The position numbers were made by a program, and so were the translations under genes. Of a stretch of DNA of 64,000 bases, positions 20,033-51,931 are shown piece after piece. This DNA comes from Alcanivorax sp. GTDB taxonomy: Bacteria > Pseudomonadota > Gammaproteobacteria > Pseudomonadales > Alcanivoracaceae. The notes under the pieces were generated by a model. The model did not search any database, was not told where the DNA came from, and saw only the letters and a program-made list of their open reading frames with translations. Location: NCBI RefSeq assembly GCF_002733835.1, contig NZ_NVWY01000006.1:62001-126000 (forward strand), in the 5' to 3' direction. Each line of letters opens with the position of its first letter. Position 1 is the first letter of the stretch.

Positions 20033-20060
20033 GCAGCAAGCTACAACCTATGAGCCACAA
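20033..20060. repeat. Degenerate heptamer array, left arm
   Basis: There are four 7-nt units directly after the kinase stop: GCAGCAA, GCTACAA, CCTATGA, GCCACAA. The array precedes the terminator; the related array at 20109-20143 lies on its other side in inverted sense. Confidence 0.6.
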
Positions 20061-20092
20061 AAAAACCGTACCTGCGAAGGTACGGTTTTTTT
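20059..20092. terminator. Bidirectional terminator between the kinase and binding protein B
   Basis: The stem AAAACCGTACC pairs with GGTACGGTTTT around a TGCGAA loop, with seven-base A and T runs on the two sides (20059-20065 and 20086-20092). It serves the convergent genes ending at 20030 and 20144. Confidence 0.93.
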
Positions 20093-20108
20093 GTTTGGGC
20101 CTTGATGC

Positions 20109-20143
20109 GAGTGACGAGTAACGAGTTTCGAAACTCGTAGCTG
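20109..20143. repeat. Degenerate heptamer array, right arm with palindrome
   Basis: The units are GAGTGAC, GAGTAAC, GAGTTTC, GAAACTC, GTAGCTG. The middle forms a perfect 18-bp palindrome ACGAGTTTCGAAACTCGT (20121-20138). In reverse complement the array reads AGCTACG at its start, matching AGCTACA in the arm at 20033-20060. Confidence 0.65.
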
Positions 20144-21319
20144 TCATTCCACCGGATTGCTGCATTCCGCCCGGCTGGCGTCCAGCTTGCAGCGGATCTT
20201 GCGTTGCAGGGTCAGCATGGTGGCGTCGTAGTAGTCTTTCTTGCGTAGTTGCAGGCGGGCTTCCTGCATCATGATTTCATATTCCTTTTTGTCTTCCTGC
20301 GGAATCTGGATCATCCAGTGTTCCGGTACTTTTTCCGCTTCGATTTCCAGGCGTTCCATGATCAGGTGGTAACTGTTGTAGAACTCTTCGCGTACCAGTT
20401 GTGCCACTTCGTTGGGGAATTTGTCCTTGCGGCCGATTAGCTGCATGGTGATTTGCGCCAGCGGGTAATCAATGATGCCGCCGTCCGGTTCCATGCCTTT
20501 GTAGAGTTCCAGGACTTCGTAGGCAACCAGAGGGGCGGCCAGAACATCCACCACGCCGTTGTTGAATTTATTGGGTGCAGACACGATGTCTGACGCTACC
20601 GGTGTTGCCCCGATTTGCGAGACCATTTCAGCTTGTGTGGGGTCGTAATCAAGCACAGCCACACGCTTTCCTGCTGCATTGGCAAGAGTGTTGATGCTTC
20701 TGTCGTTCACGAAGACATAAGCGCCACCCGCTGGAGCCAGGCCCAGAATCACATATTCACCGCTCACCATTTTGTCGGCGCTCTTTGGGCTGGCCAGGAC
20801 TTGCAGCAAAATCTTCATGTGCTCTTTGGTAGGGAGCGCGCCGATAGCATCAATGGTACCGGTGTATTTGTTGAACTGACGGCCCCGCAATCCGGTAATC
20901 AGAGCGGCATCACAAATGCCGGCCTTGAGATCTTCGGCAACCACGCTTTCGCTGGTGTAGGGCTGTACATCCAGGTCAACACCATATTGCAGCAGGCGCG
21001 TACGCTGGTCTTCGGCAGCCTTGAAAATTGGCCCGGCACGGCCAGCAATATCCCAGATACAAATGCGCCGTTTGAGCGGTTCACCCTGGCTGAAGCCCGC
21101 GGCTTTCTGCATGGCCTTGATGCGATCATCCAGGCTGCGGTTCTGGTCGAAGGCAATGGCGCGTAATTTGTCTGCCAGCGCGGGGGTGAGTTCCACGCCG
21201 GGTGCAAAGCGCTCCAGTTCGGCCTGTTGGGCGGGGGTCAGATCAAGGGTGTCATCGGCGTTGAGAGCCGTGCTGCCGATCAGCAGGGAAAAAAGGATGA
21301 AGTGACGAAGAAATCGCAC
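20144..21319 (-). CDS. Periplasmic solute-binding protein (paralogue B, extended)
   Basis: The protein has 391 residues with a signal peptide (cleavage after STALNA, about residue 21). A helical extension of about 50 residues starting LTPAQQAELERFAPGVEL precedes the binding core. The core shares ICIWDIAGRAGPIF, DLKAGICDAALITGLRGRQF, FVNDRSINTLANAAGKRVAV, LELYKGMEPDGGIIDYPLAQ and the C-terminal CKLDASRAECSNPVE with paralogues A, C and D. It is most like D (22728-23897). Its stop lies just beyond the shared terminator, and the next gene on the strand is more than 200 nt away, so it looks monocistronic. It probably delivers a ligand to the neighbouring TRAP permeases. Confidence 0.78.
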   Translation of the reverse strand: MRFLRHFILFSLLIGSTALNADDTLDLTPAQQAELERFAPGVELTPALADKLRAIAFDQNRSLDDRIKAMQKAAGFSQGEPLKRRICIWDIAGRAGPIFKAAEDQRTRLLQYGVDLDVQPYTSESVVAEDLKAGICDAALITGLRGRQFNKYTGTIDAIGALPTKEHMKILLQVLASPKSADKMVSGEYVILGLAPAGGAYVFVNDRSINTLANAAGKRVAVLDYDPTQAEMVSQIGATPVASDIVSAPNKFNNGVVDVLAAPLVAYEVLELYKGMEPDGGIIDYPLAQITMQLIGRKDKFPNEVAQLVREEFYNSYHLIMERLEIEAEKVPEHWMIQIPQEDKKEYEIMMQEARLQLRKKDYYDATMLTLQRKIRCKLDASRAECSNPVE

Positions 21320-21523
21320 GATAGCCTCCGTGGCTATTATTGTTTGTTGTTGGCATTCAGCGTTGGCCGGTTACGGCATGACTGTTCGGCATTGTGGGCA
21401 GGTAATGGTCGGCGCGTCGCTGGCTTGCCAGCCGGTACCGGTGGCGGTGCCGCCAATCGGGCGGCTTGGTCGGTGCGGAGAGTGGGGCGCGGGGAGTGGA
21501 GTGAACAAAAAGCGGGTTATTAT

Positions 21524-22594
21524 TTATTCGGTGGACTGGCTGCATTCAGGACGGCCGGCATCCAGGTTGCAACGGATACGTTTCATGATGCTCAGCATGG
21601 CAGGGTCATAATAGCCGCTATCCCGCAGTTTTATGCGCGCGTCGCGCATCATGCTGTTGTAATCCCGTTTTTCGTCATCAGGAAGGGGGGTCCACCAATG
21701 GGAGGGAATGCGTTTGGCTTCTCTTTCCAGGGCAACTTGTACAGATTGAAAGCTGTCCGCGGCGATTTCGCGAATCAGTGCGGAAAACGCTGGCGGAAAA
21801 CGATCGGAGTGGGCAATAAGCTGTGCGGTGAGTTGCACGATGGGATAGTCCACGATGCCGCCAGCCGGTTCCATGCCTTTGTAGAGTTCCAGGGCCTGGT
21901 AGGCGATCAGCGGAGCGGGTAAAACATCGACGCTGCCGTTGTTGAACTGACTGGGCGCGGTGGCCAGGGTGCTGGCCACGGGCGTGGCGCCGATATGCGT
22001 TACCATCTTTGACTGGCCGGGGTCGAAGTCGAGTACGGCCACTTTTTTTCCGGCAACCTTGCCTAGAGAGTTCAGGGCGCGGTCGTTCACGAACAGGTAG
22101 GCGGCGCCTGCAGGGGTGATGGCCAGCGTCTGGTATTTATTGCTGACCATTTTATCAGCCAGCTGCGGGTGCGCCAGGGTGCGTAGTAGCAGGTTTACAT
22201 GTTCCAGGGTGGGCAGGGCGCCCAGTGCATCGATGCTTCCTGTGAAGCGGTTGAATTGGCGAGCACGGAAACCACTCATCAGGGCGGCATCGCAATGGCC
22301 GTTTTTCAGCGAGGCGACCAACACGCCTTCGTTGGTGAACGCTTCCAGGCTGATATCAATATTGTAGCGCAGCAAATCCACGCGCAGATTGGTGGCGCCG
22401 CTGTAGACGGGGCCGGATCGGCCGGAAAGGTCCCACAGGCAGATGTGCCGTTTGAGTTTTTCCCCTTCTGCCAGCCCCATGGACTGCCGTGCCTGCTTCA
22501 ACTGTTGTTGTTGCTTGTCGGTAAGCGTCAGTGCTGAGCCATTGGCTGCAGCAACAAGAAGCACTGCCGTACATAGATATCGAAACGTCCCCAT
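21524..22594 (-). CDS. Periplasmic solute-binding protein (paralogue C)
   Basis: The protein has 356 residues with a signal peptide (to about NGSA, residue 21) and a short N-terminal helix (LTDKQQQQLKQARQSMGLAE), which looks like a reduced version of the extension in B and D. The core repeats the family blocks: ICLWDLSGRSGPVYSGA, SLKNGHCDAALMSGFRARQF, FVNDRALNSLGKVAGKKVAV, LELYKGMEPAGGIVDYPIVQ and a C-terminal CNLDAGRPECSQSTE with two Cys. The 204-bp space downstream of B suggests its own promoter. Confidence 0.77.
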   Translation of the reverse strand: MGTFRYLCTAVLLVAAANGSALTLTDKQQQQLKQARQSMGLAEGEKLKRHICLWDLSGRSGPVYSGATNLRVDLLRYNIDISLEAFTNEGVLVASLKNGHCDAALMSGFRARQFNRFTGSIDALGALPTLEHVNLLLRTLAHPQLADKMVSNKYQTLAITPAGAAYLFVNDRALNSLGKVAGKKVAVLDFDPGQSKMVTHIGATPVASTLATAPSQFNNGSVDVLPAPLIAYQALELYKGMEPAGGIVDYPIVQLTAQLIAHSDRFPPAFSALIREIAADSFQSVQVALEREAKRIPSHWWTPLPDDEKRDYNSMMRDARIKLRDSGYYDPAMLSIMKRIRCNLDAGRPECSQSTE

Positions 22595-22674
22595 GACCGA
22601 TCCTTTGTCATTTGATGAAACGCTTATAGCACGTTGCTGTGCGGCGAAGTTTTACCGCCTGTATGACAATTGTA

Positions 22675-22698
22675 CGAAGCGCCCGGGAGGGCGCTTCG
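22675..22698 (-). terminator. Hairpin between binding proteins D and C
   Basis: A perfect 10-bp stem, CGAAGCGCCC (22675-22684) with GGGCGCTTCG (22689-22698), has a 4-nt loop, 30 nt past the stop of gene D. Only a weak U run follows on the minus strand. Confidence 0.7.
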
Positions 22699-22727
22699 TT
22701 GCAGGCGTTGCGACTTGCCGAAGGGGG

Positions 22728-23897
22728 TTACTGGGTGATGCTGCACTCAGAGCGGGCCGGGTTGAACTTGCAGCGAATTTTTCGCTGCAATGTCAGCATG
22801 TCGCCACTGTAATATCCCTGGCCGCGAAGCGCGTCACGGGCGTCCTGCATCATCACTTCGTATTCCTGTTTGTCTTTTTCCGGGATGTTAATCATCCAGC
22901 GGTCAGGTACCCGTTTGGTTTCCTGTTCAATACGGCTCATTACCATGGGGTAGGCTTCAAACGAGGCTTCACGAATCAGTTGCGCTACTTCATTGGGGAA
23001 CTTGTCCAGCCTGCCGATTAGCTGCATGGACAGTTGCGTTAGTGGGTAATCGACAATGCCGCCATCCGGGCTCATGCCTTTGTACAGTTCCAGAATTTCG
23101 TAGGCAACGAGGGGGGCCGGGAGGATATCAATCTGGCCGTTGTTGAATTTGTTCGGAGCGGAAACAATGTCGGTGGTGACCGGGGTGGCACCGATGGCGG
23201 CCACCATTTCTGCCTGGGTCTGGTCGTAATCGAGCACGGCCACACGGTGGCCGGCGGCCTTGGCCAGCGAGCTGATGCTGCGGTCGTTAACAAAAATGTG
23301 GGCCGCGCCGGCTGGGTAAATGCCCATTACCACGTAATCGCCTTGCACCATGTGTCCGGCTTGTTTCGGATGAGAGAGCACCTGCAACAGGGTTTGCATA
23401 TGCTGGTTGTCGGGTACGGCACCAATGGCGTCCACGCTGCCGCTGTAAAGATTGAACTGACGTGCCCGCAGGCCGCTCATTAATGCTGCGTCACAGCGGC
23501 CAGCCTTGAATTCTTCCACCATCACCGTTTCGTTGGTGTAGGGCACCATATCCAGGTTGATGCCGTACTCCACTGCCAGCGCCCTCTGCTCCATGGCGGC
23601 ATTGAAGACGGGGCCATTACGCCCGCCAATATCCCAGATACAGATAGTGCGCTTCAGGGTGCTGCCAGCGGGCATCTGATCAAGGCCAACCATCTGGCTG
23701 ATGGCCTTGAGTCGGCTGCGCACAGGCATGTCGCGGGTATAAAAGACGTCTTCGAGTTTCTCCAGGGTGCTGTCGCTCAGGGTCACGCCAGGTAGCAATG
23801 CCTTGAGTTGAGTTTTCTGGGCGTCCGTCAATGTGGCCGCGCTGAGTGAGGAGCACAGCAGGCTGACGAGAAAGAAAAGTGTGGTGGTGGTGCGCAT
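22728..23897 (-). CDS. Periplasmic solute-binding protein (paralogue D, extended)
   Basis: The protein has 389 residues with a signal peptide (to about LSAA, residue 21) and the helical extension LTDAQKTQLKALLPGVTL also seen in B. Family blocks are ICIWDIGGRNGPVFNAAMEQ, EFKAGRCDAALMSGLRARQF, FVNDRSISSLAKAAGHRVAV, LELYKGMSPDGGIVDYPLTQ and a C-terminal CKFNPARSECSITQ. It is the outermost of the four paralogues. An uptake system with two permeases and four receptors is unusual; D and B are probably the latest duplicates. Confidence 0.78.
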   Translation of the reverse strand: MRTTTTLFFLVSLLCSSLSAATLTDAQKTQLKALLPGVTLSDSTLEKLEDVFYTRDMPVRSRLKAISQMVGLDQMPAGSTLKRTICIWDIGGRNGPVFNAAMEQRALAVEYGINLDMVPYTNETVMVEEFKAGRCDAALMSGLRARQFNLYSGSVDAIGAVPDNQHMQTLLQVLSHPKQAGHMVQGDYVVMGIYPAGAAHIFVNDRSISSLAKAAGHRVAVLDYDQTQAEMVAAIGATPVTTDIVSAPNKFNNGQIDILPAPLVAYEILELYKGMSPDGGIVDYPLTQLSMQLIGRLDKFPNEVAQLIREASFEAYPMVMSRIEQETKRVPDRWMINIPEKDKQEYEVMMQDARDALRGQGYYSGDMLTLQRKIRCKFNPARSECSITQ

Positions 23898-24030
23898 GGT
23901 GGTCTCCCTGACGCGGCATTCTTGTTATGAGCGTTACAATTAGCATGCTGTTGCCGGATAGGGGAGGGCTTTTGCGCAGAGGGTGACCGCGTTACGGCAA
24001 GCAGCGGCGAAAGGGTCAATGGTGGGCGAT

Positions 24031-24178
24031 TTGAAAGCTCAAAGTTGAAACGGGGGCAGAGCCGGGGGGGCATTTCAGTCCAGTGGCCGCGCTGCATTTG
24101 GCCTCAGGCTCTGGACCGGACAGTGAGGTTCCAAACCTGATCGCGCCTTTTCAACTTTGAACTTTTCACTTTCAACTC
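24031..24178. repeat. Inverted pair of heptamer arrays before yciK's 3' end
   Basis: The left arm (24031-24051) reads TTGAAAG, CTCAAAG, TTGAAAC. The right arm (24147-24174) reads CTTTTCA, ACTTTGA, ACTTTTC, ACTTTCA. Inside the arms, TCAAAGTTGAAA (24039-24050) and TTTCAACTTTGA (24149-24160) are perfect reverse complements. About 95 nt of non-repetitive, hairpin-rich sequence lies between. This fills most of the 288-bp gap between gene D and yciK. Confidence 0.7.
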
Positions 24179-24185
24179 ATGGTTT

Positions 24186-24977: not shown

Positions 24978-25005
24978 GCAGGCGTGATGCCTGACGCCGT
25001 ATGCG
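24978..25005. repeat. Single heptamer array upstream of yciK
   Basis: The units are GCAGGCG, TGATGCC, TGACGCC, GTATGCG. The TGA(T/C)GCC word is close to that of the array pair inside ubiG about 800 bp away. No clear inverted partner is seen. Confidence 0.5.
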
Positions 25006-25011
25006 TTTAAT

Positions 25012-25800: not shown

Positions 25801-26597
25801 TGGCTTGACGCCTGATGCTTGACGCCAGACGGCGAGGTGGATTCGTCAGGCGTCAGGCGTTCGGCGTTTGGCGTTTTTACCGCGTGCATCAGATAGTTCA
25901 CGGATACATCCCGGTTCAGCTTGTACACCTGCGTTAGCGGGTTGTAGACCATGCCGGCAGTGTCTTTGACTTCCAGCCCGGCATCGCGGGCCCAGCCGGC
26001 CAGCTCGGATGGCTTGATCAGTTTGGCGTATTCGTGGGTGCCACGGGGTAGCAGGCGCAGCACATATTCCGCCCCGACAATGGCAAACATGAACGCCTTG
26101 GGGTTGCGGTTGATGGTGCTGAAGAACACCTGCCCGCCAGGTTTGACCAGGGCCGCGCAAGCGCGGATGACCGAGGATGGGTCTGGCACGTGTTCCAGCA
26201 TTTCCAGACAGGTCACCACGTCATATTGACCGGCGCGCTGTTCGGCGATCTGTTCTGCCGGGGTTTGCAGGTATTCCACCGCCACGCCGGCCTGTTCCGC
26301 ATGAATGCGTGCCACAGCCAGTGGCGCTTCGCCCATGTCGATGCCGGTCACGTCAGCACCACGGCGGGCCATGCCTTCGGAAAGCAGGCCGCCGCCGCAA
26401 CCGATGTCGATGACTTTTTTGCCCGGCAGGCTGACGCGCTCGTCGATATAGTTCAGGCGCAGGGGGTTGATGTCATGCAGTGGGCGGAACTGGGAATTCG
26501 GGTCCCACCACTGCTCGGCCAGGGCATTGAACTTGGCGATTTCACCCGCGTCTACGTTCTGTTTGGAGGAGTGAGTCTGGGCTTGTTGTTCAGTCAC
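25797..26597 (-). CDS. ubiG: Ubiquinone biosynthesis O-methyltransferase
   Basis: This 266-residue enzyme performs both O-methylations of ubiquinone synthesis. SAM motifs are [29 protein letters not shown] and [15 protein letters not shown], then [13 protein letters not shown] and [13 protein letters not shown], all typical of UbiG. I choose GTG 26597, which has GGAG 6 nt upstream and overlaps mtaD by 8 nt, over an ATG at 26636 without such a site. The usual end (VNYLMHA) is followed by about 27 extra residues, encoded by an inverted pair of 7-nt arrays (25805-25878). Its stop overlaps mupP, so translation is coupled. Confidence 0.95.
25805..25878. repeat. Inverted pair of heptamer arrays inside the 3' end of ubiG
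   Basis: The left arm is TTGACGC, CTGATGC, TTGACGC, CAGACGG (25805-25832). The right arm is CGTCAGG, CGTCAGG, CGTTCGG, CGTTTGG, CGTTTTT (25844-25878). The arms are inverted copies of a GACGCC-type word. The array is translated as part of UbiG. Confidence 0.75.
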
Positions 26598-31070: not shown

Positions 31071-31102
31071 GCGTCGGACGTCAGACGTCGGACGTCCGAC
31101 GC
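31071..31102. repeat. Self-palindromic heptamer array after gyrA
   Basis: The units are GCGTCGG, ACGTCAG, ACGTCGG, ACGTCCG, ACGC. GCGTCGGACGT (31071-31081) and ACGTCCGACGC (31092-31102) pair perfectly, and GGTTTT/AAAACC flank them, so the array is also a strong hairpin. Its word GTCNGAC is shared with the pair after pheA. Confidence 0.7.
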
Positions 31103-31162: not shown

Positions 31163-32245
31163 ATGTCCCGCGCCTATAACTTCTGCGCAGGTCCGGCGGC
31201 GTTGCCGCAGGCGGTACTCGAACAGGCCCAACAGGAAATGCTCGATTATCGGGGCCTGGGCCTTTCCATCATGGAAATGAGCCACCGCGATAACGTCTTT
31301 GTGGAGATTGCCGAGCAGGCCGAGAAAGACCTGCGTGACCTCATGGGCATCAGCGATGATTATGCGGTGTTGTTCCTGCAGGGCGGGGCGTCCAGCCAGT
31401 TCGCCATGGTCCCCATGAATCTGTTGGGTGAAGGGCAAACGGCGGATTACATCAACACCGGGCAGTGGTCCAAAAAAGCTATCAAGGAAGCCGGCCGCTA
31501 CGGCAATATCAACGTGGCGGCCAGCAGTGAAGACACCAACTTCAGTACCGTGCCGCCGCAGGACAGTTGGGCCCTGTCTGATAACCCGGCCTATGTGCAT
31601 TACTGCCCCAATGAAACCATTGGCGGCCTGGAATACAGCTTTGTGCCGGCGGTGGGTGACACCCCGCTGGTGGCGGACATGAGTTCCACCATCCTGTCCC
31701 GGCCAGTGGATGTGAACCAGTACGGGCTGATTTATGCCGGTGCCCAGAAGAATATTGGCCCGGCTGGCCTGACTCTGGTCATCGTTCGCAAGGACCTGCT
31801 TGGCAAGGCCGGCGCCAATGTGCCCGCCATGCTCAATTACCAGATCCATGCCGACAACGGCAGCATGTACAACACCCCACCCACCTATGCCTGGTACCTG
31901 TCAGGCCTGGTGTTCTCCTGGCTGAAAAAGCAGGGCGGCGTGGGCAACATGGGCGAAATTAACCAGCGCAAGGCCGAAAAGCTGTATGGTTTTATTGATA
32001 ACAGTGGCCTGTACAGCAATCCGGTAGAGGTCATCAGTCGCAGCCGCATGAATGTCCCTTTTGTGCTGGCAGACGATCGGCTTGATAAACCCTTTCTGGA
32101 TCAGGCGCAGGCAGCTGGCCTGCTGAATCTCAAAGGCCACCGCAGCGTGGGTGGCATGCGCGCCAGCATCTATAACGCGGTGCCGGAAGCGGCGGTGGAT
32201 GCGCTTATTGCCTTTATGGCAGAGTTTGAGAAAAAGAACGCCTAG
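31163..32245 (+). CDS. serC: Phosphoserine aminotransferase
   Basis: This PLP enzyme of 360 residues makes 3-phosphoserine (serine pathway) and phosphohydroxythreonine (pyridoxal phosphate pathway). Family marks are YNFCAGPAALPQAVLEQAQ at the start, SIMEMSHR, LLLQGG-type FLQGGASSQF, and the PLP lysine in GAQKNIGPAG. I start at ATG 31163, after CGGAGAAC; the upstream in-frame ATG would lie in the terminator tail. It is first of the serC-pheA-hisC-tyrA/aroA-cmk-rpsA series known from Pseudomonas. Confidence 0.97.
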   Translation: MSRAYNFCAGPAALPQAVLEQAQQEMLDYRGLGLSIMEMSHRDNVFVEIAEQAEKDLRDLMGISDDYAVLFLQGGASSQFAMVPMNLLGEGQTADYINTGQWSKKAIKEAGRYGNINVAASSEDTNFSTVPPQDSWALSDNPAYVHYCPNETIGGLEYSFVPAVGDTPLVADMSSTILSRPVDVNQYGLIYAGAQKNIGPAGLTLVIVRKDLLGKAGANVPAMLNYQIHADNGSMYNTPPTYAWYLSGLVFSWLKKQGGVGNMGEINQRKAEKLYGFIDNSGLYSNPVEVISRSRMNVPFVLADDRLDKPFLDQAQAAGLLNLKGHRSVGGMRASIYNAVPEAAVDALIAFMAEFEKKNA

Positions 32246-32413
32246 ACGCCTCACGCACCATGCACCACGCCATGCCTGGCAGGGTTGCAGTAACGGGAAG
32301 CGCAGTGAATTGTTTGAAAAGGTGGGTAGGACAATGAATTTGAACGGTTGGCGCCAGATCGTAACCAACGCCCCCACGCCTGTTCGCGTGTTGCGTGAAG
32401 CGTGCAGCGTGCT
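32245..32413. repeat. Inverted pair of heptamer arrays between serC and pheA
   Basis: The left arm (32245-32272) is GACGCCT, CACGCAC, CATGCAC, CACGCCA; it begins on the last base of serC. The right arm (32386-32413) is GCGTGTT, GCGTGAA, GCGTGCA, GCGTGCT. The right word GCGTGNN is the reverse complement of the left type. The 113-nt spacer has no gene. The right arm ends 12 nt before the pheA start and abuts its ribosome-binding sequence. Confidence 0.75.
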
Positions 32414-32425
32414 TGCGAGGGCAAT

Positions 32426-33508
32426 ATGACCGATTCCCTGGACAACTTGCGTAACCAGATCGATGAGCTGGATCAAAAACTTCAGGACCTGCTCAACGAG
32501 CGCGCCACCCTGGCCCATAAAGTGGCCGAGGTGAAAACGGCCACCGATCCCAACCCGGTTTTCTACCGGCCTGAGCGTGAAGCCCAGGTGCTGCGTCGGG
32601 TGAAAGAGCGTAACCAGGGGCCGCTGGATGGCGAAACCATGGCACGCTTTTTCCGGGAAGTGATGAGTGCCTGCCTGGCACTGGAACAGCGCATGAAGGT
32701 GGCGTTTCTGGGACCGGAAGGCACCTTTACCCAGCAGGCCGCGCTTAAGCATTTTGGTCATGCAGTGGAGAGTCTGCCGCTGGGTGCCATCGACGAAGTG
32801 TTTCGTGAAGTGGAGTCTGGTGCCGCCAACTACGGCGTGGTGCCAGTAGAAAACTCCACTGAAGGGGTGGTGAACCACACCCTGGACACCTTCATGACCT
32901 CCAGTCTTAAAATCTGTGGGGAAGTGGAGCTGCGCATTCACCATCACCTGCTGGCCGGTGAGCATACTCGCCAGGACAAGGTGACCCGTGTGTACTCCCA
33001 TCAGCAAACGCTGGCCCAGTGTCGTCAGTGGCTGGACGCCCACATGCCCGGCGTGGAGCGGATCGCGGTCAGCTCCAATGCCGAAGCGGCCCGCCGCTTG
33101 AAAGACGAGTGGAATGCCCTGGCCATTGCCGGGGAAATGGCGGAAGAGTTGTATGGCCTCACTGCCGTACAACGCAACATTGAAGACCGCCCGGACAACA
33201 CCACCCGTTTCATTATCATCGGTCGCCAGGACACGCCGGCCTCCGGCTGCGACAAGACCAGCCTGATGATCAGTGGCAAAAATCGCCCGGGGTTGTTGTA
33301 CGAAGTGCTGTCCCCCTTCCGGGACGAAGGCATCAACCTGACCCGCCTGGAATCCCGCCCCTCGCGGACCGCCAACTGGAGCTATGTATTCTTCGTGGAC
33401 TGCGAAGGCCACAAGGAAGACGCCACCCTGCAGGCGGTGCTGGACAAACTGGAAGCCGCGGGAAATACCATCAAGCTGTTGGGTTCATACCCCAAGGCCG
33501 TTCTATAA
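32426..33508 (+). CDS. pheA: Bifunctional chorismate mutase/prephenate dehydratase (P-protein)
   Basis: The 360-residue protein makes phenylpyruvate from chorismate. Residues 1-90 are an AroQ chorismate mutase (LRNQIDELDQKLQDLLNER, with VFYRPEREAQVL). The dehydratase follows (VAFLGPEGTFTQQAALKHFG, VPVENSTEGVVNHTLDTF, and NTTRFIIIG with its Thr-Arg-Phe motif), then a C-terminal ACT domain (SGKNRPGLLYEVLSPF, ESRPSR) for feedback control by phenylalanine. Start ATG 32426 follows GAGGGCAAT at the edge of the repeat array. Confidence 0.97.
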   Translation: MTDSLDNLRNQIDELDQKLQDLLNERATLAHKVAEVKTATDPNPVFYRPEREAQVLRRVKERNQGPLDGETMARFFREVMSACLALEQRMKVAFLGPEGTFTQQAALKHFGHAVESLPLGAIDEVFREVESGAANYGVVPVENSTEGVVNHTLDTFMTSSLKICGEVELRIHHHLLAGEHTRQDKVTRVYSHQQTLAQCRQWLDAHMPGVERIAVSSNAEAARRLKDEWNALAIAGEMAEELYGLTAVQRNIEDRPDNTTRFIIIGRQDTPASGCDKTSLMISGKNRPGLLYEVLSPFRDEGINLTRLESRPSRTANWSYVFFVDCEGHKEDATLQAVLDKLEAAGNTIKLLGSYPKAVL

Positions 33509-33515
33509 AATCCGG

Positions 33516-33587
33516 GTCTGACGTCGGAGGTCTGACGTCAGACGTTTTGCGGTTTTTGCGTCGGACGTCCGACTTCAGACGTCTGAT
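33516..33587. repeat. Inverted pair of heptamer arrays after pheA
   Basis: The left arm (33516-33543) is GTCTGAC, GTCGGAG, GTCTGAC, GTCAGAC. The right arm (33560-33587) is GTCGGAC, GTCCGAC, TTCAGAC, GTCTGAT. The 16-nt spacer is GTTTTGCGGTTTTTGC. The word GTCNGAC is nearly self-complementary, so the arms can fold as one long hairpin and could terminate pheA transcripts. Confidence 0.75.
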
Positions 33588-33649
33588 CCCGATCAGATAA
33601 CCCCGGTGGCCAGGGCTGGCAACCAGGGTGTAAAGGGAGTCCCCACATC

Positions 33650-34762: not shown

Positions 34763-34786
34763 CGTCAAGCCGTTGGTGTCTCCCCC

Positions 34787-34868
34787 TGTAGGAGCGCCGT
34801 TCAGGGCGCGAACCGTACTTGGCACGGCCTATCGCAAGCAGGTTCGCGCCCTGAACGGCGCTCCTACA
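34787..34868. repeat. REP-like element, perfect 28-bp inverted arms
   Basis: The left arm (34787-34814) begins TGTAGGAGCGCCG and ends GGGCGCGAACC. The right arm (34841-34868) is its exact reverse complement, ending GGCGCTCCTACA. The spacer is 26 nt and can form its own small stem (CCGT/ACGG). It lies between hisC and tyrA/aroA. Two related elements are at 41607-41757 and 48274-48400. Confidence 0.9.
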
Positions 34869-34887
34869 GAGGAAGGTGGGCGCTCGA

Positions 34888-41606: not shown

Positions 41607-41757
41607 TGTAGGAGTCCCGCTTGAGGGACGAACCGTGCGAAGCACGGAATCGACCGCAGGGCGATCAGGCATTTCCGGGCGCTACGGGCCTCTAAATAAT
41701 GGCTTCCCTTTGGTGGCCTCGCTACGTTCGGTTCGCACCTCAAGTGGTGCTCCTACA
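41607..41757. repeat. REP-like element filling the lapB-pyrF gap
   Basis: The left arm (41607-41634) begins TGTAGGAGTCCCGC and ends GACGAACC; the right arm (41730-41757) is GGTTCGCACC to GGTGCTCCTACA. Ends match the 34787 element, centres differ but still pair partly within each arm. The spacer is about 95 nt. The element lies in the 327-bp gap 41533-41859, which otherwise shows only the pyrF upstream region. Confidence 0.8.
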
Positions 41758-46390: not shown

Positions 46391-46403
46391 ACTTTATAAG
46401 TCC

Positions 46404-46545
46404 AGGCATCAGGCAACACGCAGCGTGCAACACGGTCTAAACAGGGCAATGGCAAGGCATGAGAATCAGTGCCTCGCGCCTGGGCCTTTAGGCGAGGAGA
46501 ATAGAGGCCGGAAAAGCGTGGTTTGTCACGTGCTGCGTGCAGCGT
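46404..46545. repeat. Inverted pair of heptamer arrays upstream of uup
   Basis: The left arm (46404-46438) is AGGCATC, AGGCAAC, ACGCAGC, GTGCAAC, ACGGTCT. The right arm (46525-46545) is GTCACGT, GCTGCGT, GCAGCGT. GCTGCGT is the exact reverse complement of ACGCAGC. The 86-nt spacer contains a smaller hairpin (CCTCG with CGAGG). The pair lies between divergently transcribed uup and the desaturase gene. Confidence 0.65.
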
Positions 46546-46687: not shown

Positions 46688-47806
46688 ATGTCGGAATTTC
46701 TGCGCGAACGCTACGAAGAGGTGGATCTGACGCCGGGGCAGGGCAAGATCACGGCGACGATCTCCATCGGGCTGGGTTGTTTGGCGCTGCTGGGAAGTTT
46801 CTGTTTTCTTTATCCGGAACTGTTTACCACGCCCGAATTCAGGGCGTTTTATAATGCCGAGATCTTGCGGCTGCTGCTGTTTATTGGCATTGGTATCGGG
46901 TTTACCTGCGGGTTTTTCAGCGTGTTTCGTCACCAGGAACGGCGTTACGGCATTATCGGCATGGTGCTGGCCTGCATGGCTGCGCTTATCGGTTCCGGGC
47001 GCCTGGATGTGCCGCCGGTGGATGGACGCAGCCTCTATGCCGGCCTGGATTATTTCATCCTCACACTGCTGGTGCTGGGGCTGGTCTTTATTCCGCTGGA
47101 GCGCGCCTACCCGAAGAACCGGGAACAGAAGACCCTGCGCGGTGGCTGGGTGACGGACATGAAGTACTTCCTGTTCAGCCACGTGGCCCTGCAGCTGATC
47201 AGCTTTTTCACCATTATCCCTATTCAGGTGTTGCTGCACGACAAGGTGGACATCGGCTTCCAGCAGGCCATCGCCAGCCAACCCCTGTGGCTGCAGTTTA
47301 TTGAAATTCTGATTGTGATCGATCTGGGCAGCTACTGGATTCACCGGGCCTTCCACGAAGTGCCCTGGCTATGGAAATTCCACGCCGTGCACCATTCCAC
47401 TACCCAGATGGACTGGTTGGCCTCATCACGGCTGCATGTGGTGGAAATCATTGCCAACCGTTTTATTGGCTATCTGCCGATCTTTATCCTCGGCTTCTCG
47501 CCCTCGGCGGTGTATGCCTATCTGGTGTTCGTGTCTTTCCATGCCATCTTTATCCACGCCAATGTCCGCTTCCGGTTCCCGGGCGTGCGCTGGCTGATCG
47601 CCACCCCGGAATTTCATCACTGGCACCATTCTTCGGAAGACGAAGCGGTAGATAAAAACTACGCCGCCTTCCTGCCCATCTACGATAAACTGTTCGGCAC
47701 CCTGATCATGCCGGATCGCCTGGCCGCCGAGTACGGCACGCGGGCCAGCACCCAGGTACCGGAAGGGGTGGTCAAACAGTTCCTGTTCCCGTTCCGCCGG
47801 GGCTGA
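46688..47806 (+). CDS. Sterol desaturase/fatty acid hydroxylase-family membrane enzyme
   Basis: The protein has 372 residues. Start ATG 46688 follows GGGAGGGG. Several membrane helices (about 20-40, 55-78, 86-100, 117-135 and 160-185) precede the di-iron histidine boxes HRAFH, HAVHH and HHWHH, the pattern of the fatty acid hydroxylase superfamily (ERG3, C4-methylsterol oxidase, alkylglycerol monooxygenase). It oxidises a lipid in the inner membrane, but the substrate is not evident. Confidence 0.9.
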   Translation: MSEFLRERYEEVDLTPGQGKITATISIGLGCLALLGSFCFLYPELFTTPEFRAFYNAEILRLLLFIGIGIGFTCGFFSVFRHQERRYGIIGMVLACMAALIGSGRLDVPPVDGRSLYAGLDYFILTLLVLGLVFIPLERAYPKNREQKTLRGGWVTDMKYFLFSHVALQLISFFTIIPIQVLLHDKVDIGFQQAIASQPLWLQFIEILIVIDLGSYWIHRAFHEVPWLWKFHAVHHSTTQMDWLASSRLHVVEIIANRFIGYLPIFILGFSPSAVYAYLVFVSFHAIFIHANVRFRFPGVRWLIATPEFHHWHHSSEDEAVDKNYAAFLPIYDKLFGTLIMPDRLAAEYGTRASTQVPEGVVKQFLFPFRRG

Positions 47807-47842
47807 ATATGCATTCCCATCGCAACCCTCAAAGATGAATTT

Positions 47843-48250
47843 ATGGATGACGTGATAGACATGCTGCGCGAACGGCATGATGGCGGTCTGGTGGCCCTGG
47901 AACTGCCAGACGAAGACCGGTTGGTGGAAATTGAAGAGCAGCTGCTGATTTCACTGCCGGGGGACTACAAGGAGTTTCTGCTTAACGCCAGCGACATCGT
48001 CTGTGGCAGCCTGGAACCAGCCACGGTGATGGACGACTACGCCCACAATTTCCTCCCGGAAATGGCCGCCAACGCCTGGGATCAGGGCCTGCCTCGCTAC
48101 CTGATCCCCATCTGCGAAACCGCCAACGGCACCTACGCCATGTCCCAGGAAGGGGAGGTAGTGCTGTGGGAGCCGGGTAGCGGCATCAACGAAGACGAGG
48201 TATGGGGCAGCATCTGGCAATGGGCCAGAGAAGTCTGGCTGGAAAGCTAA
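47843..48250 (+). CDS. SMI1/KNR4-family protein
   Basis: The 135-residue protein has the pattern of the SMI1/KNR4 (SUKH) superfamily: IEEQLLISLPGDYKEFLLN near residue 31, a central PRYLIPICETANGTYAM and an acidic WEPGSGINEDEVWGSI end. Many members are immunity proteins to contact-dependent toxins, but no toxin gene is beside it, so it may be a lone housekeeping member. The gene begins 37 nt after the desaturase gene. Confidence 0.82.
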   Translation: MDDVIDMLRERHDGGLVALELPDEDRLVEIEEQLLISLPGDYKEFLLNASDIVCGSLEPATVMDDYAHNFLPEMAANAWDQGLPRYLIPICETANGTYAMSQEGEVVLWEPGSGINEDEVWGSIWQWAREVWLES

Positions 48251-48273
48251 CCCAAAGCCATCAACATGTCCCC

Positions 48274-48400
48274 TGTAGGAGTTCCCTTCCAGGGGACGAA
48301 CCCGAGCCCAAGCGAGGTGATTTCATTGTAGGAGCGGTGGTTCCACCGCAATGAAGAGCCTTGCTTCGCAAGGGTTCGCACCTCGAGAGGAGCTCCTACA
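48274..48400. repeat. REP-like element with an extra internal copy
   Basis: The left arm (48274-48302) begins TGTAGGAGTTCCC and ends GACGAACC; the right arm (48373-48400) runs GGTTCGCACC to AGCTCCTACA. A third copy of the arm start, TTGTAGGAGCGGTGGTTCC (from 48326), lies within the spacer, so the element seems composite. It sits between the SMI1-like gene and the end of the TrmY-like gene. Confidence 0.75.
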
Positions 48401-48418
48401 GCGCGTCGGCCAGGCGTT

Positions 48419-49021
48419 TCAGAATCCGGCAAGATCCAGTTCATTATTAATCAGCACCACACACTGCGACGCAAACAGCATGGTCGGCCCCAGGCTGATC
48501 TTTTCGGTGCCCAGTCGCTTCAGGCTGTTAAAACTCTTCTTCGGCATGGGAATGTGATCGGTAAGCAGGAAGCAGGGCTTATCGGCAAATTCCAGCTCGC
48601 GAATGCTCTCGCCTTTCGGGTCCATCATGTACAGCTGATGCCCATCCTCAGCCAGCTCCTTTACCAGCTTTTCAAAGCTCTGCGTGCGCACGGTAATCCC
48701 GCTCTCCACCGCCTTCATCTGTTCCTTGCCCATGCCGGCAGAAGCATCCAATGCCCGCACCACCTTGGTCAGCAGCGCCTGCTCATGAAACCCGCCAATA
48801 TCCCGCATCTCCGCCGCCACAAAGGTGATGGTGCGGGAATAGTCCTGGGTGCTTTCCAGCACCAGATGCACCACCACATCATCACGGTGTGACTGAGCCA
48901 CAAAGATCGCATTCATCAACGTATGCGCCAGAATCTCGCTATGGGCATCGCCGCCCACATTGGCAAGCAGTGTCTGGCTGTTGGTGGAGGCCGCGCGGGC
49001 ACGGAGGACGAAGGTGCGCAT
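48419..49021 (-). CDS. trmY: TrmY-like tRNA (pseudouridine-N1)-methyltransferase
   Basis: This 200-residue SPOUT-class methyltransferase has FVLRARAASTNSQTLLANVG, then GGDAHSEILAHTLMNAIFVA, VVVHLVLESTQDYSRTITF, and a late CFLLTDHIPMPKKSFNSLKR before an ISLGPTMLFASQC block for SAM binding. This matches the TrmY/DUF358 family that in archaea makes N1-methylpseudouridine at tRNA position 54. Bacterial members are known, but their substrate is not established. It stands alone between repeat elements. Confidence 0.85.
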   Translation of the reverse strand: MRTFVLRARAASTNSQTLLANVGGDAHSEILAHTLMNAIFVAQSHRDDVVVHLVLESTQDYSRTITFVAAEMRDIGGFHEQALLTKVVRALDASAGMGKEQMKAVESGITVRTQSFEKLVKELAEDGHQLYMMDPKGESIRELEFADKPCFLLTDHIPMPKKSFNSLKRLGTEKISLGPTMLFASQCVVLINNELDLAGF

Positions 49022-49207
49022 GGAATTGGGCTCTGGAGAATGTGGGCGTGATTGTACATCAGTGGCTGTGTGATCGTGGATGTTCGCGCAATGAACCTGG
49101 CTGGTCGGCCGTTTTCAGCGGAACGTTCCGCATAACTCGGGGGGGGCAAAATTTCAACACACTGATTTCAATCGATATTCCAGTGCCGGGGATCGGGATA
49201 GCAGGGC

Positions 49208-49239
49208 CGGAGTTCAAAGGAAGGTTCCTTTGAACTCCG
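49208..49239. repeat. Perfect 15-bp hairpin
   Basis: CGGAGTTCAAAGGAA (49208-49222) and TTCCTTTGAACTCCG (49225-49239) are separated only by GG. There is no U tract, so it is probably not a standard terminator; it may be part of a mobile-element remnant. Confidence 0.8.
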
Positions 49240-49270
49240 TGTAGGAGATTGGCTATTTCAGTGTAGTGAT

Positions 49271-49308
49271 TGTAGTTCCCCCGTTTTAGTGGACACCTTC
49301 TCCTAAAC
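49271..49308. mobile_element. IS-end-like sequence, copy 1
   Basis: The sequence begins TGTAGTTCCCCCGTTTTAGT and continues GGACACCTTCTCC. A TG start followed by a GTGGACAC-type block is typical of IS3-family ends. The same sequence recurs in the same orientation at 50425-50466, so the two copies bracket the hydrolase gene. No transposase gene is present. Confidence 0.6.
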
Positions 49309-49491
49309 AAAGGGCCTGGCCTGTTTTGGGGGCTGTTGGTGGCAGCGCAATTGATTTGACCAAGGCAAGACCGGAAATTCAGTAACGGTTTCTATGCACG
49401 GAACCGGTAGCAGAAACCGGGGTCTGTTCTTTTCAAGTGTCTTGAATAAAACAATATGGCCTGACTCCAGGGCTCCTCCAGGAAATAACTC

Positions 49492-50421
49492 ATGTATAGA
49501 AAAATCGTGATTGGAATTTATTTGATTCTGCTTGTCAGTCAGTACGGGTATGCAGAAGAGGGGGTGTCTTTAAAGCGGCCGGATGGCTCTGCAATCACTT
49601 TCTATCTGGACAAGAAAGGAGGCCGACATCTGCTGGTGCTGATGCAGGGCTCAGACTGCAATAGTGTGGCCCATAGCAAGGTGATTAATGATCGCTTTGC
49701 CACGGCGCTGGATGATGCGGATGTTCTGACGGTAGAGAAATATGGCCTTACCCGGTCGGTTTCCTGGAACGGTTTGGGTGATAGCTCGGAGTGTCCGGCG
49801 TCGTATTATGAGCATGATTCTCCGCAACAGCGGGCTGACGACTATTTGCGGGTGATGTCCTGGCTGGATGACCAATTTCACTATGACCACATCACGCTAC
49901 TCGGGGGGAGCGAGGGGGCGTTGGTCGCGGCGATGGTGGCGTCCCGTAGTGATGCGGTGAGTGCAGTTATCTCGCTTAATGGCGGAGGCCGGTTTTTCGT
50001 TGATGATGTGCTGCACAGTATGGAAATTGAGCTTCCTCCAGCAGCATTCGAAGAGGCGAAACAGGGTTTTCTCGCGTTTGCCGCCTCTGTCGAAGCCGCC
50101 GAAAACATGGACCTTGCGATGAGCGGCCATGGATTTCGTTGGTGGAAAAGCATGCTGGCAGCCGATCAGACTGAATTGCTGCTGAGCATCCGAGCCCCTT
50201 TGCTGATTATTCAGTCCGAACTGGATAAGAGTGTTTCGCCAAAGCTGGCTTATGATCAAGCGAGAATGCTGATGCAAAACAGGAATAACGTCGAATTTCT
50301 CACGGTTAAGGGAGTTGATCACAAGTTTCATGACCCTTCTGGGAAGGATCGTACAAGCGCAATCGTCTCTTCCGTTAAGGAATGGTTAGGAAACAACCAG
50401 ATAACAAGCGAAATCCGGTGA
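49492..50421 (+). CDS. Exported alpha/beta-hydrolase
   Basis: The protein has 309 residues with a signal peptide (to about QYGYA, residue 21). The fold's nucleophile elbow is LLGGSEGALVA with Ser, the acid is Asp in SELDKSVSP and the His is in GVDHKFHD, a complete triad. It probably works in the periplasm as an esterase or peptidase-like enzyme. Base use is more A+T rich than that of neighbouring genes, and direct repeats of an IS-like end flank the gene (49271 and 50425), which suggests arrival with a mobile element. Confidence 0.8.
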   Translation: MYRKIVIGIYLILLVSQYGYAEEGVSLKRPDGSAITFYLDKKGGRHLLVLMQGSDCNSVAHSKVINDRFATALDDADVLTVEKYGLTRSVSWNGLGDSSECPASYYEHDSPQQRADDYLRVMSWLDDQFHYDHITLLGGSEGALVAAMVASRSDAVSAVISLNGGGRFFVDDVLHSMEIELPPAAFEEAKQGFLAFAASVEAAENMDLAMSGHGFRWWKSMLAADQTELLLSIRAPLLIIQSELDKSVSPKLAYDQARMLMQNRNNVEFLTVKGVDHKFHDPSGKDRTSAIVSSVKEWLGNNQITSEIR

Positions 50422-50424
50422 TGA

Positions 50425-50466
50425 TGTAGTTCCCCCGCTTTAGTTTAGTGAACACCTTCTCATAAC
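50425..50466. mobile_element. IS-end-like sequence, copy 2
   Basis: Starting 4 nt after the hydrolase stop, TGTAGTTCCCCCGCTTTAGT is followed by TTAGTGAACACCTTCTCATA. It matches copy 1 at 49271 except for a 4-nt duplication and a few changes, in the same orientation. Confidence 0.6.
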
Positions 50467-50572
50467 CGTGTAGCGTATCTGCAGTCAGACTTCTTTTTCC
50501 CGTTCCTTGCCTTCAGCAGGGAAATGGGAAGATTGGCCTTGTCCTCGATAGGCTGAGTTCAGGAGAAATTCA

Positions 50573-51010
50573 ATGCACACCAGTGAACTACCACCGGGCA
50601 TGAATCAAGCGGATCGTGTGATTCTGTTTGATGGTGTTTGCGTACTGTGCAGCTACTGGGCGCGGTTTCTGGTGCGTTTTGATTCTCGCCGTCGATATAA
50701 GCTGGCGACTGTGCAGTCTGATGAAGGGCGTGCGATTCTGGCCTGGTGCGGTTTGCCGCTTGAGGAATTTGATACGTTGGTGCTGGTGGAGCAAGGCGCG
50801 TTTTATGTGCGTTCTACCGCCATTATTCGGGTGCTTAGGGGGCTTCCTTTCCCGTGGCCATTGGCGGCGGTGGCGCTGATATGCCCGCGTGGCATACGTG
50901 ACTGCCTGTACGACCGTATGGCGCGCAATCGCTACCGTATTTTTGGCAAATATGATGCCTGCGTGCTGCCTTCGCCGGACCATGCAGACCGTTTTCTGGG
51001 GGCGAAATAG
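50573..51010 (+). CDS. DCC-family (DUF393) thiol-disulfide oxidoreductase-like protein
   Basis: The 145-residue protein begins VILFDGVCVLCSYWARFLVR, the DxxCxxC mark of the DUF393/DCC family, whose members are predicted thiol oxidoreductases. It ends with DRMARNRYRIFGKYDACVLP, also typical. An AGGAG site precedes ATG 50573. A DoxX-like gene follows after 3 nt; DCC and DoxX genes are often neighbours. Confidence 0.9.
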   Translation: MHTSELPPGMNQADRVILFDGVCVLCSYWARFLVRFDSRRRYKLATVQSDEGRAILAWCGLPLEEFDTLVLVEQGAFYVRSTAIIRVLRGLPFPWPLAAVALICPRGIRDCLYDRMARNRYRIFGKYDACVLPSPDHADRFLGAK

Positions 51011-51013
51011 GCG

Positions 51014-51391
51014 ATGACTCTCCAGGTCTGCCGTTTTTCCATCGCCTTTATCTGGCTTTACCAGGGTATTGTGCCGAAGTGGCTGGGGCCCCATGCGGAT
51101 GAGCTGCGCATGAATATGGCGCTTGGTCTGAACGAGGCACAGGCGCACCTGCTTTCTTATGTGGGGGGTGGGCTGGAAGTGGTGCTCGGGTTGCTGGTGC
51201 TGGTCTTTTACCGCCAGCGCTGGCCCTATGTCATCACCATTGCGGCTCTGTTCGGGCTGTTCGCTTTCACTCTTTTGGTGGTGCCTGCGTTTACCGTATC
51301 TGCATTTAATTCAACCACAGTTAATCTTGCGGTCTGCTCACTGGCGGTCATTGCGCTTGCCGAGCTGCGTGTGATGGAATCCAGAGGCTGA
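51014..51391 (+). CDS. DoxX-like membrane protein
   Basis: The 125-residue protein has four membrane helices (about 4-20, 44-63, 71-90 and 96-118). The start IAFIWLYQGIVPKWLGPHAD and the helical layout match the DoxX/DoxX-like (DUF4345/4281-like) group. Such proteins accompany thiol and redox enzymes; here the partner is the DCC protein just upstream. Confidence 0.8.
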   Translation: MTLQVCRFSIAFIWLYQGIVPKWLGPHADELRMNMALGLNEAQAHLLSYVGGGLEVVLGLLVLVFYRQRWPYVITIAALFGLFAFTLLVVPAFTVSAFNSTTVNLAVCSLAVIALAELRVMESRG

Positions 51392-51462
51392 CGTGCACAC
51401 TGGCGCTTGGGCGCGCAGACAGTGCGACAACCGATTACACCTGGAATGACTCCGAGACCACT

Positions 51463-51765
51463 ATGTTTATTGCAATGAACCGCTTCAAGATCAAACCCGG
51501 CTGCGAGCAGGACTTTATCGCTATTTGGGAAGGCCGGGATACTTTTCTGCAAGAGGTGCCCGGCTTCAAGAGTTTCAATCTGCTGCAGGGGGCGAGCACC
51601 GAGGAGTACACGCTGTTCTCGTCCCACGCCACCTGGGAATCCCGTGAAGCATTTGAAGGCTGGACCAGATCGGATGCGTTCCGTAAGGCCCACGCCAATG
51701 CTGGCGCCCGCAAGGATATTTACCTGGGGCCGCCGCAGCTGGAGTGTTTTGAGGTGGTGCTGTAA
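51463..51765 (+). CDS. Antibiotic biosynthesis monooxygenase-fold protein
   Basis: The 100-residue dimeric alpha-beta barrel type has MNRFKIKPGCEQDFIAIWEG, HATWESREAFEGWTRSDAFR and KAHANAG. The pattern, especially W-x-S-x-x-A-F-x-x-W, is that of the ABM family including IsdG/HmoA heme-degrading enzymes. The conserved His of IsdG-type enzymes may be the one in FRKAHANAG, so heme breakdown is possible but unproven. Confidence 0.85.
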   Translation: MFIAMNRFKIKPGCEQDFIAIWEGRDTFLQEVPGFKSFNLLQGASTEEYTLFSSHATWESREAFEGWTRSDAFRKAHANAGARKDIYLGPPQLECFEVVL

Positions 51766-51776
51766 GCCCAGCTCCC

Positions 51777-51931
51777 CCGCAGGAGCGTCGCGGTTACCCC
51801 ATCGCGTTGCGAGAAACGATAAGCGAGAAGCGAAAACCTGACTTTCCCAACGTCCAGATGTTGATTTTCGAAACTCGCTGCTCGCGACTCGTCACGGTTG
51901 CTCTATCGCGCCGCCAGCGACGCTCCTGCGG
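51777..51931. repeat. Nested element: inverted 15-bp ends around an inverted heptamer pair
   Basis: The outer ends CCGCAGGAGCGTCGC (51777-51791) and GCGACGCTCCTGCGG (51917-51931) are perfect reverse complements and recall the GGAGCG start of the REP-like arms. Inside, the left array is TCGCGTT, GCGAGAA, ACGATAA, GCGAGAA, GCGAAAA (51802-51836, with one base between the first two). The right array is GATTTTC, GAAACTC, GCTGCTC, GCGACTC, GTCACGG (51863-51897), in inverted sense. It lies between two convergent genes. Confidence 0.75.

What the first reader, a model, noticed from the sequence alone, without database searches (positions are those of the whole stretch)
20033..51931. A family of degenerate 7-nt tandem arrays, mostly as inverted pairs, in intergenic DNA
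At nine loci (20033-20143, 24031-24178, 24978-25005, 25805-25878, 31071-31102, 32245-32413, 33516-33587, 46404-46545, 51802-51897) short arrays keep an exact 7-nt period for usually three to five units while the word drifts (for example GCGTGTT, GCGTGAA, GCGTGCA, GCGTGCT). Seven loci have two arms in inverted orientation, 16-113 nt apart; one more is self-palindromic. Words differ between loci, so the shared property is the period and the arm architecture rather than one sequence. That points to a generating mechanism (a small mobile element family, templated slippage or a structure-selected RNA/DNA hairpin) rather than simple descent. I know of no description that fits exactly, but cannot search.
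Basis: seen in the sequence. Interest (0 to 1): 0.82.

Follow-up and report, generated by a model that had tools for sequence, protein, structure and literature searches.

The report
Self-rewriting 7-base hairpin repeats
Between the genes of a marine bacterium sit many hairpin-shaped DNA repeats whose arms are built from drifting 7-base words; in related species the same spot often carries a different word, yet the two arms still match, as if one arm were copied from the other.

Summary
In detail: 8 of the 9 loci pass a period-7 test. In 708 kb of this Alcanivorax-like genome, 413 gaps hold 65 period-7 clusters; dinucleotide shuffles average 2.7, and periods 5, 6 and 8-13 give 1-9. Where two arrays share a gap, words match better inverted than direct in 20 of 24.

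The words are not arbitrary: those I compared fit one loose frame, and a long class (about 150 nt) shares a central GCCCGCG...CGCGG hairpin, found by a covariance model at further loci. Five gaps followed in 16-17 genomes of the genus often carry different words in different species, with both arms matching. At two loci the spacer is inverted; at one the element has collapsed to its outer ends. G.T and A.C mismatches in oriented stems are equal (73 vs 75), which argues against selection on an RNA strand. Two spacers searched hit only their own locus, unlike freshly copied REPINs or MITEs.

Best reading: inherited hairpin/cruciform loci rewritten at DNA level (template switching plus 7-nt slippage). 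Inverted heptamer pairs were already reported in Xanthomonas (PMC4692102): a new variant of a known kind. Function, and why 7, stay open.

The parts
20106..20138 (.). Single CGAGTNN-type heptad array ending in the palindrome ACGAGTTTCGAAACTCGT; just downstream of an inverted repeat with T run (20057-20094) that looks like an ordinary terminator
   Evidence: period-7 cluster 20106-20131; inverted repeats
24028..24178 (.). Long-class element, AAAGTTN-type arms (about 24031-24053 and 24146-24178), ~98-nt spacer; downstream of yciK (minus strand)
   Evidence: model R1 hit 24025-24171, 50.6 bits, E 4.7e-9 (A1 contains an orthologue of this element, W_L237)
24978..25005 (.).
25805..25878 (.). Short-loop inverted heptad pair, GACGCCN / GGCGTNN words, between ubiG and mupP
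   Evidence: cluster 25840-25878; fold -39.3 kcal/mol; other elements in the same gap of relatives
31071..31102 (.). Self-palindromic GACGTCN array between gyrA and serC; the identical 32 nt are in A. hongdengensis (L025), while L022 and L024 carry REPIN-like pairs there
32245..32414 (.). Inverted heptad pair with CACGCNN / GCGTGNN words between serC and pheA, ~116-nt spacer between detected arrays; an element of similar length is present in 10 of 17 genus genomes
33510..33593 (.). Inverted pair of GACGTCN arrays, short loop, downstream of pheA; kept in several species
46402..46545 (.). Inverted heptad pair with CACGCNN / GCGTGNN words between divergent genes (ABC-F-like minus, fatty-acid-hydroxylase-like plus); locus Z, where other species carry other words
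   Evidence: R1 hit 46408-46545, 31.4 bits, E 1.1e-4 (A1 contains elements of this gap from other species)
51802..51897 (.). Inverted pair of GCGAGNN arrays, inner ends GCGAAAACC and TTTTCG
51777..51931 (.). REPIN-like outer inverted pair (CCGCAGGAGCGTCGC / GCGACGCTCCTGCGG) that encloses the heptad pair

Best explanation
Each locus is a hairpin- or cruciform-forming DNA element that stays at one intergenic position. Its arms are 3-5 degenerate heptads in inverted orientation, sometimes around an older resident structure such as a terminator. SHOWN: the period, the inverted pairing, inheritance of the position across a genus, word differences between species that appear in both arms, length differences of whole 7-nt units, inverted spacers at two loci, one collapse to the outer ends. 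INFERRED: one cause. When a strand folds during replication, synthesis switches template between the arms; this copies one arm's word onto the other, flips the spacer or skips the stem, while slippage inside an arm adds, removes and homogenises units. Period and hairpin persist while the word wanders. SPECULATIVE: the recurring G in each heptad and the central hairpin of the long class point to an added constraint, such as a binding factor or use as a structure at gene 3' ends.
For: Period excess. Inverted orientation without selection on complementarity, 20 of 24. Same gap, different word, both arms: A/B pairs, five genomes at Y with the terminator kept, X and Y in 16 and 17 genomes, Z, W, U. 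Arms agree more within than between genomes (X 0.57/0.18, Z 0.67/0.22, W 0.59/0.39, Y 0.52/0.09, U 0.46/0.28). Parsimony: at least 7, 7, 8 and 4 word changes at X, Y, Z, W. Spacer inversions: Z L207/L208 reverse z 85, forward 2.4; W L239/L247 62 and 1.1. Collapse at W in G016 against its sister G019. Length steps of 7, 14 and 42 nt. Abrupt change: element 67% against flanks 97% (G016/G019, Z), but 99% elsewhere (G013/G026, W). No wobble bias: G.T 73, A.C 75 in 64 distinct oriented stems. Two spacers without copies at other loci.
Against: No single event was caught with a known ancestor; template switching is inferred from outcomes. The pair finder prefers complementary arms, so overstate the match. 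Several word changes come with an unrelated or strongly diverged spacer (Z in G013 against G026, 45% identity), which fits replacement as well. G019's Z element is closer to G020 (77%) than to its sister G016 (71%), which fits import. An invariant G-C pair every 7 nt in A1 is not expected of free drift. Clear enrichment near gene 3' ends could mean selection. Why 7 is not explained.
Confidence: 0.5

Rival explanations
1. RNA-level selection: the pairs are structured RNA at gene 3' ends (terminators or stabilising stems), and compensatory substitutions keep the arms complementary while words drift.
For: Arrays lie in 27 of 107 convergent, 46 of 395 tandem and 10 of 151 divergent gaps, median 15.5 nt from a gene 3' end. 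Terminator-like cores lie inside some pairs. RNAalifold finds 15 of 23 pairs with two-sided changes.
Against: G.T and A.C mismatches are equal in transcript-oriented stems (86/85; 73/75 without duplicates). At columns 18/157, C-G 11 and T-A 10 with no one-sided intermediate. Locus Z lies between divergent genes. No Rfam family reaches its threshold in the window. Spacer inversions are not explained.
Confidence: 0.2
2. A non-autonomous mobile family (REPIN- or MITE-like) whose ends are heptad arrays; word changes are replacements by other copies.
For: Many loci share the long-class model; presence and absence differ between species at the same gap; REPIN-like pairs occupy some of the same gaps; Y1 transposase genes occur (3 in G000).
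Against: Two spacers searched in 17 genus genomes hit only their own locus. Of 24 Y1 loci, 14 have GTAG-type tags nearby and 4 any period-7 cluster. Interiors of the long class differ between loci apart from the core. No target duplication was looked for.
Confidence: 0.15
3. Replacement by recombination: divergent alleles of the same locus are imported from other species, bringing both arms at once.
For: Sharp change at element borders; G019's element at Z is nearer to G020 than to sister G016; spacers are locus-specific; A and B have segments of differing identity.
Against: Borders coincide with the element while flanks stay 97% or more; inversions and collapse are not explained; the different words would still need a source.
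Confidence: 0.12
4. Plain heptameric microsatellites that expand by slippage; the inverted pairing is a by-product.
For: Long near-perfect arrays of the same word families, and length differences in steps of 7.
Against: Slippage does not give matched inverted arms (20 of 24) or a long class with fixed length and core.
Confidence: 0.03

Closest known systems
G-rich heptameric repeats of Xanthomonas (GGGAATC) and Nostoc (GGGGA(C/T)T), PMC4692102 (abstract, introduction, discussion and passages seen)
   Same: 7-nt unit, intergenic, few units, fewer between divergent genes, 70 and 75 inverted pairs in two Xanthomonas genomes, length and sequence variation between species
   Different: There one G-rich word per genome that can form quadruplexes; here many non-G-run words, a long class with a central hairpin, words that differ between species in both arms, inverted spacers
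TAACTGA direct repeats of Beggiatoaceae, cyanobacteria and Bacteroidetes, PMC4679880 (abstract, passages, one section seen)
   Different: One fixed word, mostly upstream of start codons, only one inverted case in that genome
REP / REPIN elements with GTAG tags, PMC3733652 (passages seen) and PMC3116915 (listing only)
   Same: Small intergenic inverted pairs; stem sequence differs between loci; present in the same gaps of Alcanivorax
   Different: GTAG-type tag and palindromic stem, transposase-flanking; heptad pairs lack the tag and are not the usual flank of Y1 genes here
Template switching at quasi-palindromes, PMC8794818 (abstract and outline seen)
   Same: A DNA-level process that creates stems and changes both arms at once
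   Different: Described there for RNA genes; here it would act on tandem heptads at many intergenic loci
Small hairpin-associated inversions of chloroplast spacers (for example PMC2903610, listing and start of abstract only)
   Same: Spacer between short inverted repeats is found flipped between relatives
   Different: Organelle DNA, no heptad arms
Short tandemly repeated heptanucleotides of Calothrix (known to me only through the introduction of PMC4692102)
   Same: Tandem heptanucleotides in a bacterium
   Different: Inverted pairing not known to me

Membership tests
Heptameric intergenic repeats (Xanthomonas/Nostoc type) | 7-nt tandem units, mainly intergenic | tested here: met
   65 clusters in gaps against 2.7 shuffled
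Heptameric intergenic repeats (Xanthomonas/Nostoc type) | G-run word able to form G-quadruplexes | tested here: not met
   Words listed carry no GGG tracts in each unit as a rule
Heptameric intergenic repeats (Xanthomonas/Nostoc type) | Some arrays in inverted pairs | tested here: met
   20 of 24 two-array gaps
REP/REPIN | GTAG-type tag next to a short palindrome | tested here: not met
   Heptad arms carry no such tag as part of the array; outer REP pairs enclose some (51777-51931; mupP-ubiG gap of L022)
REP/REPIN | Same repeat flanks the Y1 (RAYT) gene | tested here: not met
   4 of 24 Y1 loci have any period-7 cluster within about 1.5 kb, 14 of 24 have GTAG-type tags
MITE | Near-identical copies at several loci | tested here: not met
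   Two spacers, 17 genomes: hits only at the same locus; other spacers not searched
MITE | Target-site duplication | not tested
   No call made
Intrinsic terminator | GC-rich hairpin followed by a T run | tested here: inconclusive
   Some pairs enclose or adjoin a terminator-like repeat; arms themselves were not scanned with the terminator tool
Described RNA family (Rfam 15) | Match at the curated score | tested here: not met
   0 matches in the window
Structured RNA | Stem mismatches biased to G.U over A.C in the transcribed strand | tested here: not met
   73 against 75
Quasi-palindrome evolving by template switching | Both arms change together; loop flips | tested here: met
   Outcomes seen; the event itself was not observed
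Quasi-palindrome evolving by template switching | Depends on replication and hairpin nucleases | not testable with these tools
   Needs mutants

The most novel reading that the evidence does not exclude
A kind of DNA element that inherits shape and rhythm rather than sequence: many intergenic sites per genome keep a 7-nt beat, one G-C pair per beat, a fixed spacer length and a central hairpin, while an active process keeps rewriting the letters of both arms, and a dedicated cellular factor reads or makes the 7-nt beat.
Probability: 0.15. Interest if true: 0.85.

Novelty: new variant of a known kind. Interest (0 to 1): 0.62.

Why it matters
How long stems stay complementary without passing through broken intermediates is an old question. 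Here one bacterial genus offers natural replicates: the same site, several words, both arms matched, some spacers flipped. That makes DNA-level templated rewriting directly testable by sequencing strains, and it bears on the unexplained excess of 7-nt repeats in bacteria. It is also a caution: two-sided changes in intergenic hairpins need not mean a functional RNA.

Tried and rejected
Chance or composition: rejected. A serC-pheA insertion unique to this genome, suggested by four relatives, was wrong: an element is there in 10 of 17 genus genomes. A strict '5 fixed + 2 variable' unit: the two most variable columns were adjacent in 20 of 39 arrays (13 expected), only suggestive. Y1-transposase-linked ends: not supported. 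Recent copies of two spacers: none found. Uptake signals, CRISPR and integron attC sites were weighed from memory and set aside without a test. Literature: nine searches of the open-licence library listed no paper on heptad pairs in Alcanivorax that I recognised; subscription papers are not covered, and most listed papers were not opened.

Limits of the counts. Gene calls are my own (hexamer score; simple ORFs). One search kept only gaps whose best inverted repeat had a period score of 0.45 or more: X 14 of 16, Y 5 of 17, Z 14 of 17 (the window's own genome, its sister and G012 dropped), W 12 of 16, U 8 of 17; in most Y gaps the best repeat was the terminator. Words were assigned by eye (X 14 of 16, Y 12 of 17, Z 16 of 17, W 12 of 16); shuffled labels gave means of 8.1, 6.5, 8.3 and 3.8 changes, so words carry little phylogenetic signal. 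Permutation counts (X 0, Z 0, W 6, Y 39, U 58 of 5000) are flattered by the pair finder's preference for complementary arms. A1 was chosen by a core pattern and arm complementarity, so core and pairing there are partly by construction. One search's 115 stems include duplicates; one search repeats the count on 98 distinct stems, 64 oriented. In some searches the inverted-partner score beat all 20 nulls in only 16 of 62 clusters, coding ones included. In Thioalkalivibrio (200 kb) there were 15 intergenic period-7 clusters against 1-9 at periods 5-13 other than 7, and of 4 neighbouring pairs 2 are clearly inverted and 1 is direct; in G179 4 against 0-4, so no enrichment.
Full report
What is there. 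The window lies in a genome whose closest named relatives by SerC are Alcanivorax (86-88% identity for L022-L025). Eight of nine loci pass; 24978-25005 does not. Over 708 kb of the same genome, 413 gaps hold 65 clusters at period 7, 1-9 at periods 5, 6 and 8-13, and 2.7 after shuffling. Stretches of four relatives show the same excess (intergenic period-7 clusters: A 21, B 13, C 8, D 4). Besides short degenerate arrays there are long near-perfect ones of the same word families, such as GTTGCGA about 12 times and GGCGTCA about 13 times.

Architecture. Here arrays were found by period alone. In 24 gaps with two arrays the words are more alike inverted than direct in 20, tied in 3, direct in 1. 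Spacings are 82-127 nt in 14, 9-53 in 8, and 317 and 354 in 2. Arrays occur in 27 of 107 convergent, 46 of 395 tandem and 10 of 151 divergent gaps, at a median of 15.5 nt from a gene's 3' end. Arms often end inward in CGCG or GCGAAAACA whatever the word. Read from that end, the word families I compared fit a loose frame N-N-[AC]-G-[CT]-N-N; this is a reading by eye.

A long class. Twenty-one elements, from three gaps in several species and three loci of this genome, align over about 150 nt: heptads, CGCG, a central GCCCGCG...CGCGG hairpin, CGCG, heptads. The core was used to collect them, so its conservation there is partly built in. Fifteen of 23 predicted pairs have two-sided changes; at columns 18/157 C-G occurs in 11 and T-A in 10, with no one-sided change; G-C pairs recur every 7 nt. 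A covariance model R1 also scores gaps it was not built from: L007 88.2 bits, L019 56.3, L156 51.7, and contigs C6, C24 and C56 near 100 bits. It also matches the window at 24025-24171 (50.6 bits) and 46408-46545 (31.4), whose orthologous gaps are in A1. In a family-wide sample 12 of 12 genomes of the same genus have matches, 10 of 12 of genus g3, and 2 of 16 of the rest. In a class-wide sample 6 of 228 other genomes have any; 4 of 5 such loci inspected are inverted heptad pairs. Counts stop at a scoring cap and include both strands.

The same site, different words. Five gaps were followed in 16-17 genomes of the genus. At X, before alaS, species carry CTAGCT, AAAGTT, CAAGTT, CAAGCT or CGAGT words and two have none; at Z CACGC, CAAGCT, AAAGTT, CGAGCT, CTAGCT or CAAGTT, and one has none. 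With words assigned by eye, parsimony needs at least 7, 7, 8 and 4 changes at X, Y, Z and W, close to what shuffled labels need. At Y the arms flank a terminator-like repeat that stays while both arms differ. Arm 1 resembles the complement of arm 2 more within a genome than between genomes at the same gap. The pair finder favours complementary arms, so that test overstates the case; the two-array test does not. Not all loci change: serC-pheA keeps its CACGC words in 9 of the 10 genomes where the element is present, by inspection, and yciK's element is 99% identical between G013 and G026.

Signs of DNA-level rewriting. The spacer of L207 at Z is the reverse complement of L208's (reverse z 85, forward 2.4), and at W L239 against L247 (62 and 1.1). 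In sisters G016 and G019 the Z element is 67% identical with 97% identical flanks; at W G019 has the full pair and G016 only AGTTGAACTTTCAACT, the outer ends joined. At other loci sisters are nearly identical, so change looks abrupt rather than steady. Between A and B, arrays differ by 7, 14 and 42 nt. In 64 distinct stems oriented by transcription there are 1580 Watson-Crick pairs, 73 G.T, 75 A.C and 210 other (86 and 85 with duplicates). Selection on a transcribed strand should favour G.T.

Is it mobile? REPIN-like pairs occupy some of the same gaps in other species, and Y1 transposase genes exist (3 in G000). Of 24 such loci, 4 have any period-7 cluster within about 1.5 kb. Two spacers searched against 17 genomes hit only their own locus, in 5 and 2 genomes. 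Recent copying is therefore unsupported for these two; an old dispersal is not excluded. Against pure in-place change: G019's Z element is nearer to G020's (77%) than to its sister's (71%), and some word changes come with an unrelated spacer (G013 against G026 at Z, 45%). Import or replacement may add to the turnover.

Elsewhere. Thioalkalivibrio sulfidiphilus has inverted heptad pairs with its own words, a period-7 excess of 15 against 1-9 in 200 kb, and 28 R1 matches. Among the other relatives' 20-kb loci, few had any intergenic period-7 cluster. The pattern is patchy.

What is known. PMC4692102 (abstract, introduction, discussion, passages) reports G-rich heptamers in Xanthomonas and Nostoc, 70 and 75 inverted pairs in two Xanthomonas genomes, and cites an idea that 7 nt fits the DNA held by the polymerase. 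PMC4679880 reports TAACTGA repeats. PMC8794818 (abstract and outline) describes template switching that fixes both arms of a stem. The passages I saw do not describe arms that differ in word together at one site, or flipped spacers in heptad pairs. I conclude: a new variant of a known kind, with a likely but unproven mechanism and no shown function.

Noticed in passing
window 32334-32429 (+): Small open frame MNLNGWRQIVTNAPTPVRVLREACSVLARAI between serC and pheA, with a GGTGGGTAG upstream; its stop overlaps pheA's ATG (ATGA). A similar frame is open in 9 of 17 genus genomes. Its 3' part is encoded by the right heptad arm; possibly a leader peptide.
   Followed up: partly
window 34786-34869 and 41607-41757: REPIN-like inverted pairs with TGTAGGAG tags; similar pairs replace each other in the same gaps of relatives.
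   Followed up: partly
L019:10610-10714, L019:14183-14288, L007:17918-18011, L154:4157-4291: Long near-perfect heptad arrays; L154 switches from TAGCTTC to GGCGTCC in phase within one array.
   Followed up: no
L023:9770-10000: In A. profundi the gyrA-serC gap holds an inverted pair of CACAGAG-type repeats with a longer period and the same GAAAACA / TTTTC inner ends; L181 and L173 carry similar ones.
   Followed up: no
L058:1847-1927 and 13299-13394: Thioalkalivibrio sulfidiphilus has inverted heptad pairs with its own words.
   Followed up: partly
L283:13260-13551: Very long CCTAACT array in Thioalkalivibrio spanning an assembly gap of N.
   Followed up: no
window 20057-20094: Strong terminator-like inverted repeat with T run, unrelated to the heptad array beside it.
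   Followed up: no
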